Below are positions 42,148 to 52,702 of a stretch of 64,000 bases of DNA, piece after piece. The translations under genes and the position numbers were made by a program. The stretch covers positions 190,206-254,205 of the forward strand of contig MKWG01000007.1 of assembly GCA_001899685.1 (NCBI GenBank), given 5' to 3'. The stretch comes from Sphingobacteriales bacterium 44-15 (GTDB taxonomy: Bacteria; Bacteroidota; Bacteroidia; Chitinophagales; Chitinophagaceae). A model generated the notes under the pieces. That model was not told the origin of the DNA and searched no databases. It was given only the letters and a program-made list of their open reading frames with translations. Every line of letters begins with the position of its first letter. Position 1 is the stretch's first letter.

Positions 42148-42996
42148 TTAATAAACCTTCCCGGAAAAATCAATTGACTTTCCAATATCAACAGACCGGC
42201 TGTTCACAGCCACCCGTGGCGAAAACCCTTTGGCTTCTACCACATAAGCAACAAATGACAGGTTGTTTTTTGAATAACCGGCCGGAATAGTATAAGTAAA
42301 AGTTTTTGAGTAAAGTCCGTTCCTGGCTATAGTACCCAGCGCATCGCCAAAATAATTGCTGCTCAGAAATGACCTGAGCACATGAGAATGGTGATAATCC
42401 TCTATCCATTTCCTACTGCCGTCAACAAGATCGGCCTGCCTGTAGGGAATATCGTTTTCCAACACTGCTACCGCCAGGCGATAGTCCGCACTTGCTTCTC
42501 CTATATTAGATACCCGCACTTCTATCCTTACCGTATTATCGTTAACAACGGCAGTAGTAAGTGATATTCCTATTTTCGCCGGCGTATTGATCCTTTCCAA
42601 AAAGGCGCTGGAAGAGGCATCGAATATACCCACAGAAACAAGATCATCCCGTTGGTCTATTATCATACCCGGGTATCCTGTTACCCCGTAGAAATAATTC
42701 TGGAACTGTTTATAGCTGCTGAACTCCATCGGGTCATCTTCATCCAGCCGTCCATGTACACTTATAATATCTATTCTGCCAGGATACTTTGTTTTGGATG
42801 TTTCTTCCAAAACTTCTGACACTCCGGGGCAGTACACACAATCGAAAGAAACGAATTCCATTACCAGTACATTTTTTGTAAAGGAGCTGTCGGGATCAGC
42901 CGGAGTAATACCATCATTTTCCCCGCTGCCCTTTGCACAGGAACCGATGGCAACCACCATACAACAAACCGAAATAATCTTAAGCAGCTTCTTCAT
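42148..42996 (-). CDS. Omp28-like lipoprotein with thioredoxin-type CXXC
   Basis: 282 residues. Lipoprotein signal VVAIGSCAKG (Cys20). A thioredoxin-like domain follows with EFVSFDCVYCPGVSEVLEE (CVYC), a strand IDIISVHG, and the cis-Pro-like GYPGMIID. The C-terminal part (about 150-282) is an all-beta Ig-like domain. This is the layout of the Omp28 family of Bacteroidetes surface lipoproteins, some of which may act as thiol oxidoreductases. It begins 12 bp after the DUF6029 gene. Confidence 0.85.
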   Translation of the reverse strand: MKKLLKIISVCCMVVAIGSCAKGSGENDGITPADPDSSFTKNVLVMEFVSFDCVYCPGVSEVLEETSKTKYPGRIDIISVHGRLDEDDPMEFSSYKQFQNYFYGVTGYPGMIIDQRDDLVSVGIFDASSSAFLERINTPAKIGISLTTAVVNDNTVRIEVRVSNIGEASADYRLAVAVLENDIPYRQADLVDGSRKWIEDYHHSHVLRSFLSSNYFGDALGTIARNGLYSKTFTYTIPAGYSKNNLSFVAYVVEAKGFSPRVAVNSRSVDIGKSIDFSGKVY

Positions 42997-45609: not shown

Positions 45610-45706
45610 GTGTTGTGTCAAACGTGAAACGTGAAATGTGAGAGGTGAGACGATAAATGTGAAGATCTCACATTTATCGCCTGCCATTTCACGTTTGACA
45701 TAACAC
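45610..45706. repeat. Interspersed hairpin repeat, copy 10 (best-formed)
   Basis: Outer arms GTGTTGTGTCAAACGTGAAA (45610-45629) and TTTCACGTTTGACATAACAC (45687-45706) pair with one mismatch in 20. The inner GATAAATGTGA pairs with TCACATTTATC. It touches the SusD stop codon and lies inside the operon. Confidence 0.85.
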
Positions 45707-47427
45707 TAATAACCGGGATTTTGAGCAATGCCCAGATCGTTGCCGGATAGCCCTTTGGGAATAGGAAACCTGTAAAATTTACCGGAAATATTATCTGTTT
45801 TTGCATGCAGATGCTTATATATCTTGGCAAAAAACGGATAATTGGTTTTCACTTTACCACCTGTTCCGTCACTTTCAGGACCGAATTTAGCGACGATGGA
45901 TGCTACGGAACTGTAATCTGATTTATAGTACTCAAACGTAGGCACATCCGTTAGTACCGTGCCAACCAGTTTTCTCCAGCGGACAAGATTAGACCAATGC
46001 CTTTGTTCAAAATACAGCTCGAGATACCATTCTTTTTCCAGCTCTTCATGCGTAAGTGTAGCATAAGTGCTCACACCAGCCCTTTGCCTTAACTGGTTAA
46101 TGACCTGTGCAGCTTCCGCAGCCTTACCCAACTGAAGCAATGCCTCTGCCTTGGTCAACAGCACTTCAGCATAGCGGATGTCAATACGGTTTATATTATT
46201 CGGTTGTCCTGCTTCTGAGCCTGCGGCAACATCCGTAAACTTGGAATTACGCTGTACAAATTTGCCGATGCGCGGCGAAGTAACAGGAAATACAAAGTCA
46301 TATTCTTTGTAATCTGCTGCCTTGGTTGCCGGGGATGCCACAGGTTCATCCTGGTCAAACAACTTGGTGTAAAGAGAAAAGTGCTTACGCTTATCTTCGT
46401 CGGGAAAACGGTCAAGCAATTTAACATCCGCCGGGCCGATATGGTTATCCTGGTAGAGGTCAAACCGGAAAGTGAACGTACAATGCGTCTGGTGATTCCC
46501 CTGTGCATCGCCCAATCCATCTCCGTCATGATGAATAGTAAAGACATGCTCAGGTGATTTATCTTCAGCCGACACGCCAAAATTGCTTTCAAAATTCGTC
46601 TCCAACTTATAGTTACCGCTACTGATCACCTTATCAGCATACTCTACCACTTTTTGAAGCCTGTCATTATCCCAGGCTGCGGGAGAAGGATCTGTCCTGC
46701 CTGCTGCTATCGAAGCCACTTCGCTCTGTGAAAGCGGTTTGCTGGCCCAATTAAGATAGGCCCTGGCCAGAAGCGCATTGGCTGCCCCTTTGCTTGGATT
46801 AGAACGAACCACATCAAATGCAGGCAGATCTTTTTCGGCTTCAGTAAAATCTTTTACAATTTGAGTATACACTTCGTCAATAGACTTACGGGTTGTTTGT
46901 TCCTGCTGTGTTGGATTGGTTTTTAAGATAAGCGGTACTTCCCCCCACAGGTTTACCAGGTAAGAATAAGCATGCGCACGTATGAATTTTGCTCTTGCCC
47001 TTGCAAGGTCAATACTTGCCTGCGTCAAATTATCACCGGCCTTGCTGGAATCCGCTTTTTCAATCGTCCTGTTGGCTTCTCCAATGCTTACATACAGATA
47101 GTTGAAGATCTTTGTGGGATACCAGTTATTTACATCTGTCTTTAACTGGCTCACCAGGGGACCATCCGCATCATCAGCTCCTTCAAAGCTGACCGTATGC
47201 TCACTGGTTGATTCCAAAAGAAAGGAAAACGAAGAGCTCAGCCGCTGCCATGGCGGGAAAGCTGCACTGGCTGTGGCTAATGCTTCCTGGTCATTTTTCC
47301 AAACCGATTCTCCGGTAATTACTGGTGGCGGAGTGTCTCCTCCACCCACATCCTTCTTGCAGGAATAACCTGCGGAAGAGATCACTACAATAGCCGCGAC
47401 GGCTATTTTTTTAAGGGACTTTGTCAT
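45706..47427 (-). CDS. SusD/RagB family nutrient-binding lipoprotein
   Basis: 573 residues. Lipoprotein signal ISSAGYSCKK (Cys23). The all-helical SusD fold with tetratricopeptide-like repeats: RARAKFIRAHAYSYLVNLWGEVPLIL (key part RAHAYSYLVNLWGEVPL), NALLARAYLNWA, and the C-terminal DIRYAEVLLTKAEALLQLG and ELYFEQRHWSNLVRWRKL. It is the surface lid that captures substrate over the SusC pore. Located 52 bp after susC. Substrate unknown; no glycoside hydrolase is in the locus, arguing against a polysaccharide system. Confidence 0.94.
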   Translation of the reverse strand: MTKSLKKIAVAAIVVISSAGYSCKKDVGGGDTPPPVITGESVWKNDQEALATASAAFPPWQRLSSSFSFLLESTSEHTVSFEGADDADGPLVSQLKTDVNNWYPTKIFNYLYVSIGEANRTIEKADSSKAGDNLTQASIDLARARAKFIRAHAYSYLVNLWGEVPLILKTNPTQQEQTTRKSIDEVYTQIVKDFTEAEKDLPAFDVVRSNPSKGAANALLARAYLNWASKPLSQSEVASIAAGRTDPSPAAWDNDRLQKVVEYADKVISSGNYKLETNFESNFGVSAEDKSPEHVFTIHHDGDGLGDAQGNHQTHCTFTFRFDLYQDNHIGPADVKLLDRFPDEDKRKHFSLYTKLFDQDEPVASPATKAADYKEYDFVFPVTSPRIGKFVQRNSKFTDVAAGSEAGQPNNINRIDIRYAEVLLTKAEALLQLGKAAEAAQVINQLRQRAGVSTYATLTHEELEKEWYLELYFEQRHWSNLVRWRKLVGTVLTDVPTFEYYKSDYSSVASIVAKFGPESDGTGGKVKTNYPFFAKIYKHLHAKTDNISGKFYRFPIPKGLSGNDLGIAQNPGY

Positions 47428-47479: not shown

Positions 47480-50400
47480 CTAGTAGGTAACATTTACACC
47501 AAACAAAAAGGTACGGGGCATGGGAAATGCGCCCAGATCAACACCCCCGGCTATTTCCGGGTCATACCCTTTATATCCAGTAAGTGTGAGCAGGTTTTGT
47601 CCCGTTGCAAACAGACGCAGCCGAAATGGCGGCAGCTTCCGCGACGTTAGCAGTGCTTTATTTACAGTATAGCCGATGGTTATTGTTCTAAGCCGCAAAA
47701 AAGAAGCATCTTCTATATACCGGCTATCCAGCTCAGATGAAAAAGGACTGCTGGTAATACGGGGAACGGTATTGGATGGATTAGATGCAGTCCAACTGTT
47801 CAATAATACAGCAGAAGTATTATACGCGTCTGTTGGCCGTTCCAGGTAGCGGCGAAGCTTATTATATACACTGTTGCCACTGGCGCCCTGCAATAAAACG
47901 AAGAGATCAAATCCTTTAAAATTCAGTGATGAGGAAAAGCCGTATATGAGCTTTGGCTGTTTGCTGCCCAGCACCACGCGGTCGTTTTGATCAATATGCC
48001 CGTCCTTATTAACATCTTTTAAGCGCGGATCACCGGGCTGCGGAGTAGTATACGACGGGCTGCTGGGCAATTTTGATACATCTTCTCCTTCCTGGATCAC
48101 TCCTTCAAATACCTGCCCGTAGAAGGAGCCTAAAGGCTGACCCACACGAAGGATTTCAACACCAAGTATTCTCTCCGTTACGTCATTATATAATCGCGTA
48201 ATCCTGTTTGTATTATGTGCAACGTTGGCCGCTACAGACCACTGAATGCTTTTCTTATCCACTACCAGTGCATTTACGGATACTTCCACACCCCTGTTCT
48301 CAAGGTTCCCTACATTAACCAGTTGCTCATTGCTCTGTCCCAGGTTGGGAGGGATACGGATGAGCAGGTCTGAAGTTTTCTTATAATACACATCAAGCGT
48401 TGCAGCAATGCGGTTATTCAATATACCCACGTCTACACCTGCATTATACTGCGAAGTTGTTTCCCACTTGAGATTGGTATTGCCGCTATTACCTACCTGG
48501 TATGCGATATCATTACCGTAATACACTGCCTCGAGAAGCTGCAGGTACTCGTAATCACCGATTTCCTGATTTCCTACCTGCCCTGCGCTTAAGCGTAGTT
48601 TTAAATTACTGAGCGGCTTGTAGTCTGACAGGAAGGACTCTTCATTAATATTCCATGCTAAACCTACCGAAGGGAAAAGTCCCCATTTATGATTTTTTGC
48701 AAAACGCGTGGAGTAGTCGCTCCTGAAATTAGCCGTCAGGTGATACCTGTCGAGCAATGAATAATTTACCCTGCCAAGGAGGGAATGAAGCTTACTTTCT
48801 GTTTGCCCGCTAAAGATCGGGCGGCTGCCATAAGGTTTACCATCCTGCAGATTATTTACTCCCAGGTCTTCATTGGTAAACTTTGAGCTTAAGGTTGAAA
48901 TAAAGTTGGTTTTTGTACGCTGGAAAGTATACCCTGCCAAAATATCGAATGCGTGGATATCATTTATCTGCTTCGCATAGGATAAGGTATATTCGTTAAG
49001 CAGTATCTCTGACCTTTTGTTACCAATGCCACCTATACCTTTGGGCTCAAGCCCGATAGCAGTATAAGAAGGAGAAAAATAATTTTGCGTTGTATACCCC
49101 AGGTTGCTGCCCACACTTACTTTTGCCGTTATTCCTCCTCTCGTCTTATATTGGGCGTAAGCATTTGCCAAAACAGAGGAATATATTGTTTGCGCTGTGC
49201 TCTTTAAGAGGTCTGCTATCGGGTTGGCAGTAGTATCGCCCTCTCTTAGATACGCATATTCAAAAGGATTTTTAAAATTATATGCTCCGGCTGATGTATA
49301 AAACGGTACCACCGGCGGCATATACAAGGCGTATGTCAGGGAATTGGTAATACCTGCAGAATAAGGAGAGCTGTTGTAGTTAACTTCCTCAAAAGTAGTA
49401 AGCGTATTTTGTGTGCTTTTGCTTCCTGTCAGGCTGATCCCTACCTTCAGTCCCTGTACGATAGTGCGATCATAATTTGCCCTGCCAACAAACCGTTTAA
49501 AGCCCGAATTTAAAACAACTCCTTCCTGGTCCAGATAATTGGCAGATAAGAAGTACTGTGATTTTGCGTCACCGCCACTTACCGAAAGAGAGTGGTTTTG
49601 TGTGAGACCGGTTTGCAAAACAGCCTCTTGCCAGTCATATCCTTTTCCCAACCGGGAAATCTGCTGATCAGTATATCCAGGCTTATTCAGAAAATAATCT
49701 TTCTGCAGGCGCGCCCATTGTGTTGCATTCAGCAGGTCGAGCTGCTTAGCTGAATTAGCTACGCCGAAGGAATACTGGTAGTCTATAGCGCTTCCTTCCT
49801 TTTTGCCTTTCCTGGTAGTAATCAGTATCACACCATTTGATCCCCGCGAGCCATAGATAGCAGTGGCTGATACATCCTTCAATACCTCAATGGATTCAAT
49901 ATCTCCCGGATTAAGAAAAGAAAGCGGATTGAGCTCACCTTCAATGGCTCCCATACCCACCTTAGTGGAAGAGTTATCACTGAAGTAAAGAAATCCGTCA
50001 ATCACAAAAAGAGGATTGTTGCTCGCATTCACTGAATTGCCTCCTCTTATACGGATCGTTGCGGGAGCGCCGGGTTGCCCGGAGGATTGCGTAACATTTA
50101 CGCCTGCTACTGTTCCTCCCAACAATGCATCTACCGACGGCGAAACATTATATTCCAGCACTTTTTTGGATACGGAAGCTATTGCGCCGGTCAGATCTTT
50201 TCTTCGCTGAGTGCCATATCCTACCACTACTACTTCATTCAGCACATTAATATTCCGGGAAAGTGAGATGGTAGCCGTATCATGCAACGCATACAATTTT
50301 TCTTCAACGGATTTATAACCCACAGCGCTTATAACAAGCGTTACCGGAAGCGCATTCAAAGTATGCAACGAGAAAAAACCATTAGCATTGCTCAGCACTG

Positions 50401-50572
50401 TATTATCATGCCCTTTCTCTCCTATTACGGCGCCAGCCACCGGCTCGTGATTATTATCATCAATAATATAACCGTGAATAATGCGGTGCTGTGCCTGCGC
50501 TCCCGTGCAATAAAAATAAATACCGATAAAAACAAATACCCTGATCAATAATGGCCTGTAAAAAAACTTCAT
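47480..50572 (-). CDS. SusC/RagA family TonB-linked outer membrane transporter
   Basis: 1030 residues. Signal peptide, carboxypeptidase-D-like domain (about 30-110, HGYIIDDNNHEPVAGAVI), TonB-box and plug with VVVGYGTQRRKDLTGAI, IRGGNSVNASNNPLFVIDG and SIEVLKDVSATAIYGSRGSNG (20-residue phrases shortened), then a large barrel. It forms the pedal-bin transporter with SusD. It is the first gene of the long minus-strand locus, with a 258-nt leader after a SAM-clan-like structured RNA and a perfect TTTG-N20-TAGCTTTG promoter. This places outer-membrane uptake under likely SAM control. Confidence 0.95.
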   Translation of the reverse strand: MKFFYRPLLIRVFVFIGIYFYCTGAQAQHRIIHGYIIDDNNHEPVAGAVIGEKGHDNTVLSNANGFFSLHTLNALPVTLVISAVGYKSVEEKLYALHDTATISLSRNINVLNEVVVVGYGTQRRKDLTGAIASVSKKVLEYNVSPSVDALLGGTVAGVNVTQSSGQPGAPATIRIRGGNSVNASNNPLFVIDGFLYFSDNSSTKVGMGAIEGELNPLSFLNPGDIESIEVLKDVSATAIYGSRGSNGVILITTRKGKKEGSAIDYQYSFGVANSAKQLDLLNATQWARLQKDYFLNKPGYTDQQISRLGKGYDWQEAVLQTGLTQNHSLSVSGGDAKSQYFLSANYLDQEGVVLNSGFKRFVGRANYDRTIVQGLKVGISLTGSKSTQNTLTTFEEVNYNSSPYSAGITNSLTYALYMPPVVPFYTSAGAYNFKNPFEYAYLREGDTTANPIADLLKSTAQTIYSSVLANAYAQYKTRGGITAKVSVGSNLGYTTQNYFSPSYTAIGLEPKGIGGIGNKRSEILLNEYTLSYAKQINDIHAFDILAGYTFQRTKTNFISTLSSKFTNEDLGVNNLQDGKPYGSRPIFSGQTESKLHSLLGRVNYSLLDRYHLTANFRSDYSTRFAKNHKWGLFPSVGLAWNINEESFLSDYKPLSNLKLRLSAGQVGNQEIGDYEYLQLLEAVYYGNDIAYQVGNSGNTNLKWETTSQYNAGVDVGILNNRIAATLDVYYKKTSDLLIRIPPNLGQSNEQLVNVGNLENRGVEVSVNALVVDKKSIQWSVAANVAHNTNRITRLYNDVTERILGVEILRVGQPLGSFYGQVFEGVIQEGEDVSKLPSSPSYTTPQPGDPRLKDVNKDGHIDQNDRVVLGSKQPKLIYGFSSSLNFKGFDLFVLLQGASGNSVYNKLRRYLERPTDAYNTSAVLLNSWTASNPSNTVPRITSSPFSSELDSRYIEDASFLRLRTITIGYTVNKALLTSRKLPPFRLRLFATGQNLLTLTGYKGYDPEIAGGVDLGAFPMPRTFLFGVNVTY

Positions 50573-50690
50573 GCGCTAAAAATTAAACTTGAACTGTGCT
50601 TATTGAATATTAAAAGAGACTGTACCGGTTTATCGGGGGATGCCTGTTGACAATACGCTGCCTCATCAGGCACAAGACACCTACAGGAAA

Positions 50691-50717
50691 GCTTTTACAG
50701 AGAAGCAAAATAAAAGC
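50691..50717 (-). other. Leader hairpin, possible part of expression platform
   Basis: Minus strand GCTTTTA (50717-50711) and TAAAAGC (50697-50691), a perfect 7-bp stem with a 13-nt loop, followed by TTTCC. It is too AT-rich to be a convincing terminator. Confidence 0.35.
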
Positions 50718-50830
50718 CTACCTACATCAGGTTATACCGATACAAACAGGTAAAATCAATACTGGTTTACGTCAACAACGCTCCGGAGAGCCTGACATAA
50801 AATGAACATCTGAAGCTGAATACATGATGT

Positions 50831-50942
50831 AGTCAATTTATAGTTTCTAAATATTGTTTAGACCAGGTTGGGCACTTATCCTTGCCGGAAGTTGCCAGAA
50901 GTTCGCAGAGCCTGACTCTCCCTTCTTCTGTATAAATTAACT
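50831..50942 (-). ncRNA. SAM-clan (S-box-like) riboswitch candidate upstream of susC
   Basis: On the minus strand a 112-nt element is closed by a 12-bp P1 (AGTTAATTTATA / TATAAATTGACT, one G-U). Inside: P2 GAAG ... CTTC enclosing GGAGAGTCAGGCTCTGCGAA; then TGGCAAC; P3 ACTTCC / GGATAAGT around GGCA; then GCCCAACC; P4 TCTAAA-CAATA-TTTAGA; then GAAAC before P1 closes. This is the order and wording of SAM-I (GGAGGGACTGGCCC..GAA..GGCAAC..GGTGCCAAtTCC..GAAA), with enough changes that it may be a SAM-I/IV-type variant. The neighbouring gene has a standard SAM-I switch. Ligand is inferred. Confidence 0.7.
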
Positions 50943-50971
50943 AACTAATGGTGGTGATTAATTAGATGATG

Positions 50972-51003
50972 CAAAGCTATACTGTTGTAATATTACTTCC
51001 AAA
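50972..51003 (-). promoter_or_regulatory. Promoter of the susC locus
   Basis: Minus strand TTTG (51003-51000), 20 bp, TAGCTTTG (50979-50972): a full match to the Bacteroidetes consensus. Transcription should start near 50965, about 22 nt before the riboswitch P1. Confidence 0.8.
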
Positions 51004-51120
51004 TTTTTAGTCTACTAATTTTATAGGCTTTTGTTTTATTTTTTTTTGCCTAAACAGTAAAGGAAAACCGGTTAACATTCTCTTGACCAATTCTATCCAC
51101 AGAAGTACTATCTTCAGGTT

Positions 51121-51176
51121 CGTGAAACGTGAGATGAGAAACGTGAAACGAACTTTCACATTTCACGTTTGACTTA
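51121..51176. repeat. Interspersed hairpin repeat, copy 11
   Basis: CGTGAAACGTGAGATGAGAA and ACGTGAAACG face TTTCACATTTCACGTTTGAC. Confidence 0.7.
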
Positions 51177-51514
51177 GCATTGTTTTTTTTCTGAAGCCCC
51201 TCTGTCGAAGGTTACCAAATATATGACCACCATAATATTCTGAACCCGGCAGGGGGCTCCAGAAAATAAATAACGTTTACCCATTGCAGGGGATATATAA
51301 AATTTCGGCGGAATAAATGGTGGTGGTTTATTAAAGCCGGAAGATACTAAGCCTGTCTTAGCTGCAACAATGCAAACAGGAATTTGCAAATACCTTATTA
51401 CAGGAAAAAAGCGGATTGAAATGCAAAGCGTTTAACATCGAATTATCAATTTGCCTACAAATTTAGTAGACTATTCAAATAAAACAATTTTTTCCTGCTG
51501 ATTTTTTCATTAAA

Positions 51515-52702
51515 CTATACCGCCACTGCTTCTGGTCTTTTTTTATTTGCATGACTTTCAATTACAGCAAATGCATTTTTTAAATCGTCAATAAGGTCAT
51601 CCACATCTTCCAGTCCCACGCTTAATCGTATAAGACTGTCTGCAACACCGGATACCTTTCTTATTGTTTCAGGAATAGACTTATGCGTCATTTGTGCGGG
51701 ATGACACAAGAGGCTTTTAACCCCTCCCAGGCTTTCTGCGAGCTTAAAATATGCTGTGGAAGTCACGAAGGCATTAGCCGCAGCAACCGTATCTTCTTTT
51801 AATGTGAAAGAAACAACGCTCCCAAAACCATTGGCCTGCTTCGCCGCAACAATATGATTGAAGTGATCTTTCAATCCGGGATAATACACTTTACCCACGG
51901 CAGGGTGTGTCTGTAAATATTCTGCCACCGCCTGAGCATTTGCACAATGTTGCTTCACACGAAGATGCAACGTTTCAATACCACGGATCACCAGCCAGCT
52001 GTCAAAAGGAGAAAGTATAGCCCCGCTCGCATTCTGAATGAATTTTATTTTTTCTCCAAGCTCTTTCTCCCGGGTGATGACCAGTCCTGCTATCAGGTCG
52101 CTATGCCCGCCAAGATATTTGGTGGCAGAATGCACCACAATATCAGCGCCAAGCGTAAGAGGATGTTGTAATGCCGGAGATGCAAAAGTGTTGTCTACAC
52201 AAAGCAGGCATTTATTGGATTTAGCGATACCGGCGATAGCTTCAATATCAGATATCTTCAAGGTAGGGTTAGTAGGCGTTTCGAGCCAGATGAGTTTTGT
52301 TTTTGAAGTGATGGCATTCAAAACGTTTTCTATGATGCTTGTATCAACATAGCGGACCCGGATACCAAATTTTTGATACACGTGGGTGAACATACGGAAT
52401 GCCCCGCCATAAATATCATCAACCGCTAATATTTCATCTCCGCTTTCAAGTAATTTTATTACTGCATCAATAGCAGCCAGCCCGCTGGCAAAAGCCGCGC
52501 CTGCAGTACCTTTCTCAAGAGTAGCTGCCAGTGTTTCCAATGCTGCGCGGGTGGGATTTCCACTGCGGGCATAATCATAGCCTTTATTGACACCAGGCGC
52601 TTCCTGAACGAAAGTGCTTGTCTGATAAATAGGTACCGAAATAGCTCCCGTCAACGGGTCTGCCGGAATGCTGTGGAGGAGTTGTGTTGCAATGCTGCTC
52701 AT
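51515..52702 (-). CDS. PLP-dependent trans-sulfuration enzyme (cystathionine gamma-synthase/lyase or homoserine sulfhydrylase type)
   Basis: 395 residues, Cys/Met-metabolism PLP family. The cofactor lysine is in VVHSATKYLGGHSD near residue 195; YDYARSGNPTR near 45 and SLLCHPAQMTHKSIPE and RLSVGLEDVDDLI near the end are family hallmarks. It makes or breaks C-S bonds of cystathionine or acylated homoserine. The SAM-I riboswitch and terminator just upstream argue for methionine biosynthesis (metB-like, repressed by SAM). The exact reaction cannot be fixed from motifs. Terminated-leader control is direct from sequence. Confidence 0.92.
   Translation of the reverse strand: MSSIATQLLHSIPADPLTGAISVPIYQTSTFVQEAPGVNKGYDYARSGNPTRAALETLAATLEKGTAGAAFASGLAAIDAVIKLLESGDEILAVDDIYGGAFRMFTHVYQKFGIRVRYVDTSIIENVLNAITSKTKLIWLETPTNPTLKISDIEAIAGIAKSNKCLLCVDNTFASPALQHPLTLGADIVVHSATKYLGGHSDLIAGLVITREKELGEKIKFIQNASGAILSPFDSWLVIRGIETLHLRVKQHCANAQAVAEYLQTHPAVGKVYYPGLKDHFNHIVAAKQANGFGSVVSFTLKEDTVAAANAFVTSTAYFKLAESLGGVKSLLCHPAQMTHKSIPETIRKVSGVADSLIRLSVGLEDVDDLIDDLKNAFAVIESHANKKRPEAVAV

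What the first reader, a model, noticed from the sequence alone, without database searches (positions are those of the whole stretch)
50831..50942. SAM-clan riboswitch-like RNA in front of a SusC/SusD uptake locus
Seen: a 112-nt element with a 12-bp closing stem and the ordered core GGAGAGTCAGGCTCTGCGAA, GGCAAC, a P3 hairpin, GCCCAACC, a P4 hairpin and GAAA, all under a perfect TTTG-N20-TAGCTTTG promoter. Known: this is the layout of SAM-I aptamers, and a standard SAM-I switch controls the adjacent gene. Inference: a diverged SAM-binding switch regulates outer-membrane import, an unusual target for this class. The expression platform is not obvious, because 258 nt separate the aptamer from the start codon.
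Basis: partly seen in the sequence, partly recalled or inferred. Interest (0 to 1): 0.82.

Follow-up and report, generated by a model that had tools for sequence, protein, structure and literature searches.

The report
SAM riboswitch nested with leader peptide
A standard RNA sensor for the methionine-derived molecule SAM sits in front of a nutrient-import gene cluster in a Bacteroidota bacterium, and it may act by covering the start of a tiny leader gene ending in cysteine, which would tie import of an unknown nutrient to the cell's sulfur supply.

Summary
The element is real, minus strand: an ordinary SAM-I aptamer (RF00162, 50938-50835, 71.7 bits against 44.4), not a diverged one. Another RF00162 (52963-52843) precedes the metB-like gene next door. 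SusC/SusD as target is supported: in four other genomes of the genus the same ~170-nt promoter-aptamer cassette follows metB and heads the same import cluster, rearranged so that another receptor comes first (one contig ends early). Six more SAM->SusC cases lie outside the genus, but SusC stays a rare target (2 of 129 sites of a phylum sample).

New: a 17-18-codon leader ORF (50825-50772, ending Arg-Cys) starts 9 nt after P1 in all five cassettes. Ten dissimilar loci share the layout: TTTATA-type P1, mostly extended with covariation towards the ORF's AUG, no terminator; eight have Cys near the peptide end. Polycysteine leader ORFs follow SAM aptamers mainly at OAH-sulfhydrylase, cysH, OsmC and SusC genes (23 of 217) but not at metB, metX or metH (0 of 92). 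Best reading: SAM-bound P1 hides the leader ORF, which gates import. SAM binding, translation, cargo and cysteine sensing by this one-Cys leader are untested.

The parts
50972..51003 (-). Bacteroidota-type promoter, TTTG-N20-TAGCTTTG
   Evidence: read; same place in 5 cassettes (G010 has TATACTTTTG); a TTG-N(17-24)-TAnnTTTG match lies within 110 nt upstream of 66 of 88 family/genus SAM sites, the -7 box alone in 79 of 88
50941..50965 (-). 5'-terminal hairpin CTAATTAAT-CACCACC-ATTAGTTAG, nearly invariant in the five cassettes, function unknown
   Evidence: sequence; 23 nt of it occur once in own genome with up to 3 mismatches
50835..50938 (-). SAM-I riboswitch aptamer (SAM#2), RF00162
   Evidence: 71.7 bits, E 8.5e-15; covariation
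50830..50943 (-). aptamer with P1 extended to 13 bp (50943-50931 / 50842-50830)
   Evidence: folding, and cognate/non-cognate strand test over 10 loci
50772..50825 (-). leader ORF MYSASDVHFMSGSPERC*, AUG 9 nt after Rfam P1 end, 4 nt after extended P1
   Evidence: aligned ORFs in 4 other genomes, coding test
50573..50771 (-). 199-nt stretch from the leader ORF to SusC; no TAnnTTTG promoter box; only a weak terminator-like hairpin at 50750-50717
47480..50572 (-). SusC/RagA-family TonB-linked receptor (1030 aa), first gene of the cluster
   Evidence: TIGR04056 E 9.8e-243
45706..47427 (-). SusD-family lipoprotein
   Evidence: PF07980, PF14322
45099..45572 (-). DUF4625 protein, His-rich tail
   Evidence: PF15418
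44583..45071 (-). TlpA/thioredoxin-like protein
   Evidence: PF00578
43009..44583 (-). DUF6029 protein
   Evidence: PF19494 E 6e-167
42148..42996 (-). Omp28-family protein
   Evidence: PF11551
39649..41943 (-). second TonB-dependent receptor (TBDT2); first gene after the cassette in three relatives
   Evidence: PF00593/PF07715
38429..39649 (-). BNR-repeat protein paired with TBDT2
   Evidence: PF13088
35790..38408 (-). TonB-dependent receptor with N-terminal heavy-metal-associated domain
   Evidence: PF00403 + PF00593
52843..52963 (-). second SAM-I aptamer (SAM#1) in front of the metB-like gene
   Evidence: 88.4 bits
52775..52804 (-). intrinsic terminator after SAM#1, stem varied but paired in the 7 genomes aligned
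51515..52702 (-). Cys/Met-metabolism PLP enzyme (cystathionine gamma-synthase/lyase type; called MetB here)
   Evidence: PF01053 E 7e-151; the NCBIfam models shown score below their cut-offs

Best explanation
A SAM-I OFF switch controls an outer-membrane import cluster. When SAM is plentiful it stabilises the aptamer and its 13-bp P1; because P1 ends 4 nt before the AUG of a 17-codon leader ORF and its 3' strand (UAUAAAUU) is the AU-rich stretch upstream of that AUG, ribosomes cannot start the leader ORF. When SAM is low P1 opens, the leader ORF is translated, and passage or stalling of the ribosome near its terminal Arg-Cys-stop lets SusC and the genes behind it be expressed, so that import rises when the SAM/cysteine sulfur pool is low. 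Shown by sequence comparison: aptamer, its conservation with the cluster, leader ORF, P1-AUG geometry, covarying P1 extension, absence of a terminator. Inferred: SAM binding, occlusion of the start, translation of the ORF, coupling to SusC, cysteine sensing by this particular leader (one Cys codon only), and that the cargo is a sulfur source or a cofactor for sulfur metabolism.
For: RF00162 hit with covariation including the pseudoknot. Gene set metB / SAM#2 / {TBDT2-BNR-HMA receptor} / {SusC-SusD-DUF4625-Trx-DUF6029-Omp28} is kept in G002, G010 and (without a BNR match) G009 with the two blocks swapped relative to the window, SAM#2 first each time; in G003 the contig ends inside the HMA receptor. 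Cassette nearly invariant in 5 genomes. Leader ORF with same start and stop in 5 of 5 and one in-frame indel; open in all five and as similar in 11 of 5000 column shuffles. Of 209 SAM sites tested, 17 have an ORF of 8 or more codons starting 6-9 nt after P1; 14 of these 17 have the P1 TTTATA, and of 17 TTTATA sites among 217, 14 have that ORF. P1 extension pairs better with its own partner strand: 5.4 versus 2.9 pairs, reached by 1 of 20000 permutations over 10 dissimilar loci. No terminator in these 14, against 96 of 203 other sites and 38 of 41 MetB sites. Cys-run (CCC) leader ORFs after SAM aptamers: OAHS 11 of 86, SusC/TBDT 4 of 11, CysH 3 of 5, OsmC 2 of 2, uncharacterised 3 of 10; MetB 0 of 41, MetX 0 of 19, MetH 0 of 32; shuffles expect 0.03-0.10 per group.
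Against: The window's own leader has one Cys codon, and none of the 5 genus cassettes has a Cys run. Two of the 14 (L200, L221) have no Cys in the last ten codons; Cys in the last ten codons is also common in other ATG-started leader ORFs (113 of 252), so a single Cys is weak evidence. Five of the 14 are one lineage, so counts on 14 overstate independence; in L247 the P1 extension adds only 1 pair. Three sites with another P1 (L051, L189, L212) also have an ORF 6-9 nt after P1. Lack of a terminator is not special to this group: MetH 0 of 32, MetX 1 of 19 and SusC outside the genus 1 of 6 have one. In G011 the same cluster lies divergent from metB without a detected aptamer, and TBDT2-BNR pairs in seven other genomes have none. 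J3/4 is one nucleotide shorter than in the 12 other aptamers compared. How the leader ORF would act on SusC 199 nt away is unknown; no conserved structure was found there.
Confidence: 0.55

Rival explanations
1. A plain SAM-I switch acts on SusC directly (hidden terminator, Rho, or start-site masking somewhere in the 258 nt); the leader ORF is incidental.
For: A weak terminator-like hairpin lies at 50750-50717 (2 such sites found in the region, 2.6 expected from shuffles). The metB aptamer next door has a clear terminator.
Against: No comparable terminator in the four other cassettes or in the 14 loci of the same layout; sequence conservation falls off just after the leader ORF and the downstream gene differs between genomes, so a platform acting on SusC itself is not shared.
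Confidence: 0.22
2. SAM gates the leader ORF, but the ORF works by translation-transcription coupling (protecting the nascent RNA from Rho) and does not sense cysteine. This is a narrower form of the best explanation and overlaps with it; the odds are not exclusive.
For: Same geometry evidence as the best explanation; only one Cys codon here, none near the end in L200 and L221.
Against: The C-terminal RC-stop is kept in 5 of 5 with synonymous changes (CGA/CGT, TAA/TGA) and seven of the nine other dissimilar leaders of this layout have Cys near the end, six of them two or more.
Confidence: 0.35
3. The aptamer binds another ligand (SAH or a SAM analogue) because J3/4 is shortened.
For: J3/4 is one nucleotide shorter than in 12 other aptamers.
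Against: Core, pseudoknot and score are those of RF00162; residues that contact SAM in solved SAM-I structures (recalled, no call) appear present.
Confidence: 0.04
4. SAM#2 is a non-functional duplicate of the metB aptamer.
For: Tandem position 1.9 kb from SAM#1.
Against: Promoter and aptamer are nearly invariant across genomes whose MetB proteins are 78-86% identical to the window's.
Confidence: 0.02

Closest known systems
SAM-I (S-box) riboswitch, RF00162
   Same: full-length match above gathering score, helices and L2-J3/4 pseudoknot
   Different: target is an outer-membrane import cluster; no terminator found; P1 extended to a leader-ORF AUG
Polycysteine leader ORF attenuators of mycobacteria (Canestrari et al. 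2020; only its title seen, in the reference lists of PMC13236596 and PMC9031893; paper not held)
   Same: by its title, short polycysteine ORFs that act as cysteine-responsive attenuators
   Different: here behind a SAM-I aptamer, in Bacteroidota; the window's leader has one Cys
uORFC-8-2 motif before cysS in Rhodobacterales (PMC8632094, passages)
   Same: leader ORF with tandem Cys codons proposed to attenuate a Cys gene
   Different: ends in its own terminator; no riboswitch mentioned in the passage
TPP and cobalamin riboswitches before outer-membrane transporters in Bacteroidota (PMC7366714 and PMC9723704, passages)
   Same: riboswitch in front of an outer-membrane nutrient transporter
   Different: the ligand is a form of the vitamin concerned; here the expected ligand is SAM and the cargo is unknown
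Tandem riboswitches, including T-box+SAM in Bacillota (PMC12452182, passages)
   Same: two sensors of related metabolites in one leader
   Different: the second sensor here would be a leader ORF, not a second aptamer

Membership tests
SAM-I riboswitch RF00162 | covariance-model score over the curated gathering score | tested here: met
   71.7 vs 44.4 bits
SAM-I riboswitch RF00162 | P1, P2, P3 with compensatory changes | tested here: met
   both-sided changes at P1-3, P1-8, P2a-2 to 2a-5, P2b-2, P3a-1, P3b-2 over 17 sequences; the two outermost Rfam P1 pairs hold in only 6 and 9 of 17; P4 not counted
SAM-I riboswitch RF00162 | pseudoknot between L2 and J3/4 | tested here: met
   CAGG:CCUG vs AUGG:CCAU; the four pairs hold in 14, 17, 17 and 17 of 17
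SAM-I riboswitch RF00162 | kink-turn in P2 | not tested
   no separate analysis made
SAM-I riboswitch RF00162 | selective SAM binding | not testable with these tools
   needs in-line probing
SAM-I transcription-terminating switch | intrinsic terminator after P1 | tested here: not met
   none found in the window leader within 130 nt and none in 13 like loci; present in MetB 38 of 41
SAM-IV / SAM-I-IV (RF00634, RF01725) | best score within the SAM clan | tested here: not met
   RF00162 is the reported best of the clan
Polycysteine leader-ORF attenuator | run of Cys codons in a short ORF before a sulfur gene | tested here: not met
   window leader ends RC*, one Cys; met in 23 of 217 SAM leaders, the window not among them
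SusC/SusD pair | TIGR04056 SusC followed by SusD-family lipoprotein | tested here: met

The most novel reading that the evidence does not exclude
Bacteroidota use a nested sulfur gate: a SAM-I riboswitch whose direct output is not the structural gene but a cysteine-reading leader ORF. In one form SAM terminates transcription before a polycysteine ORF; in the other (the window's) P1 itself extends to and hides the ORF's AUG. Only cells short of both SAM and cysteine fully open the gene, which may be a SusC/D importer of a sulfur source.
Probability: 0.45. Interest if true: 0.82.

Novelty: new variant of a known kind. Interest (0 to 1): 0.64.

Why it matters
SusC/D systems are mostly discussed as glycan importers (recalled); a SAM-I switch gives a handle on a set whose cargo should matter to sulfur or one-carbon metabolism. 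The pairing of a riboswitch with a Cys-codon leader ORF would be a two-input control built from an RNA sensor and a ribosome sensor, and the P1-on-AUG form is a very short expression platform that can be tested with a few point mutations. It also points to further candidate sulfur-regulated genes in the phylum through their leaders.

Tried and rejected
Rejected: a diverged or SAM-IV type aptamer; a terminator platform for SAM#2 (a 14-bp hairpin at 50750-50717 is not above shuffle level in number and has no counterpart in the four relatives); a conserved RNA structure after the leader ORF (energy -2.5 kcal/mol only). A first measure of P1 extension by free duplex folding did not separate the groups (12 against 203 sites, p 0.57 for extension and 0.08 for pairs), because it lets strands extend by chance; the later test with cognate and non-cognate strands did. 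In one search one locus (L247) was misparsed and inflated the result; one search repeats it corrected. An exact pattern for MQLCCC-stop found only its source in 244 genomes, so that peptide ending is not itself a family. Module elsewhere: Trx-DUF6029 is an adjacent same-strand pair in 15 of 18 fetched loci, with no RF00162 in the six of these that were scanned; in those 18 loci SusC, SusD, DUF4625 and TBDT2 gave no strong match. A role in copper uptake for the TBDT2/HMA part was considered from the HMA domain and left open. A covariance model of the aptamers was built and not used.

Rows dropped: of the phylum listing 129 places were read (29 as given loci, 100 fetched); other listed and all unlisted places were left for lack of calls, not by target. 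Eight of 217 sites had no classifiable first gene and were left out of the P1-AUG test (209 tested). A first CCC scan with poorer gene starts gave 16 hits and its shuffles 15; with better gene starts gives 23, and repeats the shuffles for it (sum of means 0.31; two antisense hits, both in the metB/metX/metH group). Labels MetB, OAHS, CysH, CysD, MetX, MetH, HSD, RteC and OsmC come from similarity to a panel; one member of each was checked by Pfam or NCBIfam (the MetX member scores below the MetX cut-offs). The panel label 'MetF?' (1 site) is a tetrapyrrole-methylase-family protein, not MetF.

Full report
OBSERVATION. The element exists as described, on the minus strand. cmscan over the window finds two RF00162 (SAM-I) matches: 50938-50835(-), 71.7 bits, and 52963-52843(-), 88.4 bits. 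In a search of 50600-51300 at E up to 10 the six other matches are microRNA and lncRNA models far below their gathering scores. The promoter TTTG-N20-TAGCTTTG, the core motifs and the 258-nt distance to SusC are confirmed by reading.

GENES. Downstream on the minus strand: SusC (TIGR04056), SusD, DUF4625, a TlpA/thioredoxin-like protein, DUF6029, Omp28, a second TonB-dependent receptor (TBDT2), a BNR protein and a receptor with a heavy-metal domain. Upstream is a Cys/Met PLP enzyme with its own SAM-I aptamer (SAM#1).

CONSERVED LINK. The genome has three RF00162 sites. All 12 genomes of the genus searched have at least one. In G000, G002, G003, G009 and G010 a second aptamer follows metB. In G002 and G010 the order is metB, SAM#2, TBDT2, BNR, HMA receptor, SusC, SusD, DUF4625, Trx, DUF6029, Omp28; G009 is the same without a BNR match; in the window the two blocks are swapped. 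In G003 the contig ends within the HMA receptor, the first gene after SAM#2. So the aptamer heads the same gene set whichever gene comes first. Exception: in G011 TBDT2, BNR, HMA receptor and SusC lie divergent from metB and no second aptamer is found. One named relative is Terrimonas sp. NS-102 (L151; its contig length equals that of G002:C5).

OTHER SAM->SusC CASES. I read the first downstream gene at 217 SAM sites: 25 in the genus, 63 in 30 family genomes chosen because they had more than one site, and 129 of a phylum sample. SusC or another TonB receptor follows in 11: five in the genus, four in three other genera of the family (G235, G112, G106, G246) and two in another family of the class (G383, G328). 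The four family cases each have a SusD-family gene next; their aptamers re-score at 70.6-78.3 bits. In the phylum sample, not chosen by target, it is 2 of 129, with 5 unclassified; the rest are OAH sulfhydrylase 68, metH 27, metX 18 and metB 9.

LEADER ORF. Alignment of the five cassettes shows near identity from the promoter to about 15 nt past P1. There a short ORF begins in each: window MYSASDVHFMSGSPERC*, G002 MQPGSKSIYLMFCSKMRC*, G009 MHLGTKSFHLMSCWNTRC*, G003 MHSGTRSFHLMSVWSTRC*, G010 MYSRTILIHLMFSKITRC*. Start and stop are aligned, the single indel is 3 nt, R-C-stop is kept through synonymous changes. Column shuffles gave an ORF open in all five and as similar in 11 of 5000; variable codon positions are 11, 8 and 12 of 16 for first, second and third, so the coding signal is moderate. 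The ORF is the same in kind before SusC, TBDT2 or the HMA receptor.

CYS LEADERS. The four family SAM->SusC leaders carry Cys-run ORFs...RMQLSCCCCCMR* (G235)...MQRCCCCCCMG* (G112)...MRCCCC* (G106)...RMQLCCC* (G246); G328 has ...RMCMELCCSS* and G383 ...RMCMPVNI*, neither with a run of three. Over 217 sites a CCC-containing ATG-started ORF lies between aptamer and gene in 23: OAHS 11 of 86, SusC/TBDT 4 of 11, CysH 3 of 5, OsmC 2 of 2, an unassigned gene 2 of 2, unclassified 1 of 8; none in MetB (41), MetX (19), MetH (32), HSD (3), RteC (7) or the one tetrapyrrole-methylase site. Dinucleotide shuffles of the same segments expect 0.31 in all; reading the antisense strand gives 2, both in the metB/metX/metH group. 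Six of the 11 OAHS hits come from the 10 OAHS sites of the window's genus, so they are not independent; one is the third aptamer of the own genome, with MMLLRYNPILPVTCGICCCCMP*. Among 174 upstream regions in 32 long loci 21 have such an ORF: 7 at OAHS (six directly behind a SAM aptamer), 7 at cysH (PAPS reductase domain in all seven), 4 at SAM-led SusC, 2 at SAM-led OsmC and 1 at a PhyH gene. Those loci were mostly chosen around SAM sites, so the background is not a random gene set.

TWO LAYOUTS. In type A a strong terminator follows P1 and the Cys ORF comes later (for example OAHS L002, L012, L014, L048, L066, L072; CysH L097, L110, L111; SusC of G328, whose ORF has only CC). In type B an ORF of 8 or more codons starts 6-9 nt after P1, P1 is TTTATA and no terminator is found: five cassettes, OsmC in G009 and G003, OAHS L187, L200, L221, L223, L230, L237, L247. 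Of 209 sites tested, 17 have an ORF at that distance and 14 of the 17 have TTTATA; the other three are L051, L189 and L212. Of 17 TTTATA sites, the three without it are L232, L240 and L249. Terminator within 130 nt: 0 of 14 type B, 96 of 203 others, 38 of 41 MetB, but also 0 of 32 MetH and 1 of 19 MetX. For ten dissimilar type-B loci the strands flanking P1 pair on towards the AUG: 5.4 pairs on average with the true partner (1 in L247 to 9 in L016), 2.9 with partners from other loci; 1 of 20000 permutations reaches this. In the window P1 reaches 13 bp and ends 4 nt before the AUG. Because type B was picked by an ORF near P1 (and Cys for the first 12), the P1 sequence, missing terminator and covarying extension are the independent parts of this evidence. 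Of the 14, 12 have Cys in the last ten codons, but so do 113 of 252 other leader ORFs; the runs, not the single Cys, are the striking part.

MECHANISM. The simplest account is that P1, stabilised by SAM, hides the leader ORF's start, and that the leader ORF governs the cluster. How it does so (Cys stalling, coupling, or both) is inferred. The neighbouring SAM#1 looks like a terminator switch: the stem GCTCATC/GATGAGC varies in paired fashion in the seven genomes aligned, and the P1 3' strand GATAAGCCAGAT can pair with ATCTGATTTATC of the terminator (read).

LITERATURE. Ten searches of the open-access library were made. No held paper has 'SAM riboswitch' with 'SusC' and 'Bacteroidetes'. The one paper with 'SAM riboswitch', 'TonB' and 'Bacteroidetes' (PMC7160235) names SAM riboswitches only in lists of known RNAs in the passages shown. 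The other listings were judged by title and abstract start; passages were read in PMC3766115, where 'TonB' and 'outer membrane' do not occur, and in PMC13236596, PMC9031893, PMC12452182, PMC9723704, PMC7366714, PMC8632094, PMC6429828 and PMC2965389. Leader-peptide attenuation in a flavobacterium and leader-like short ORFs in Bacteroides are mentioned in general terms. Most subscription papers are not held, so 'not in print' is not shown.

VERDICT. SAM-I identity about 0.97, control of the import cluster about 0.9, leader ORF real about 0.75, cysteine sensing by this leader about 0.4 (own estimates).

Noticed in passing
L032 (G000:C37:70000-89999), aptamer at C37:79711-79832: Third SAM aptamer of the own genome precedes an OAH sulfhydrylase, with terminator and polycysteine leader ORF MMLLRYNPILPVTCGICCCCMP*.
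   Followed up: partly
L033:14048-14782, L039:6645-7376, L040:10892-11623, L041:7371-8099, L043:789-1580, L044:7841-8575, L119:9363-10079: Seven cysH-type genes have polycysteine ORFs just upstream, such as MVKIDIYCCCCC*, possibly a cysteine attenuator independent of SAM.
   Followed up: partly
L030:9014-9877, L031:6429-7382: SAM-I aptamers in front of OsmC-type genes (L030 checked by Pfam) with Cys-run leader ORFs in G009 and G003.
   Followed up: partly
L154 (MKRS01000888.1, 'Bacteroidales bacterium 45-6' MAG): A 3.4-kb contig carries the window's cassette and SusC start with no difference seen by eye in the stretch printed; the bin name disagrees with the family, so possibly a misbinned contig.
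   Followed up: no
L075-L081: TBDT2-BNR pair is kept in seven genomes of other genera without an Rfam hit nearby; in L075 it lies beside nitrate-assimilation-like genes (recognised by eye, not tested).
   Followed up: partly
L288, L290, L291, L295, L297: DUF6029 lies tail to tail with a metF-like gene in 5 of 18 fetched loci (two confirmed as TIGR00676); in L298 a partial copy is 3.8 kb away.
   Followed up: partly
L056, L065, L067, L068, L069, L071, L087: SAM aptamers upstream of an RteC-type gene (L068 checked by Pfam) in seven family sites.
   Followed up: no
L216/L237 (G297:C3:371546 and 373101): Another tandem pair of SAM aptamers 1.5 kb apart in a different family; the second is type B with a Cys-rich leader before OAHS.
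   Followed up: partly
window 50941-50965 (-) and 51312-51332 (-): Nearly invariant 5' hairpin with loop CACCACC just after the promoter; a similar AATAAA-CCACCACC-ATTTATT motif lies after metB.
   Followed up: partly
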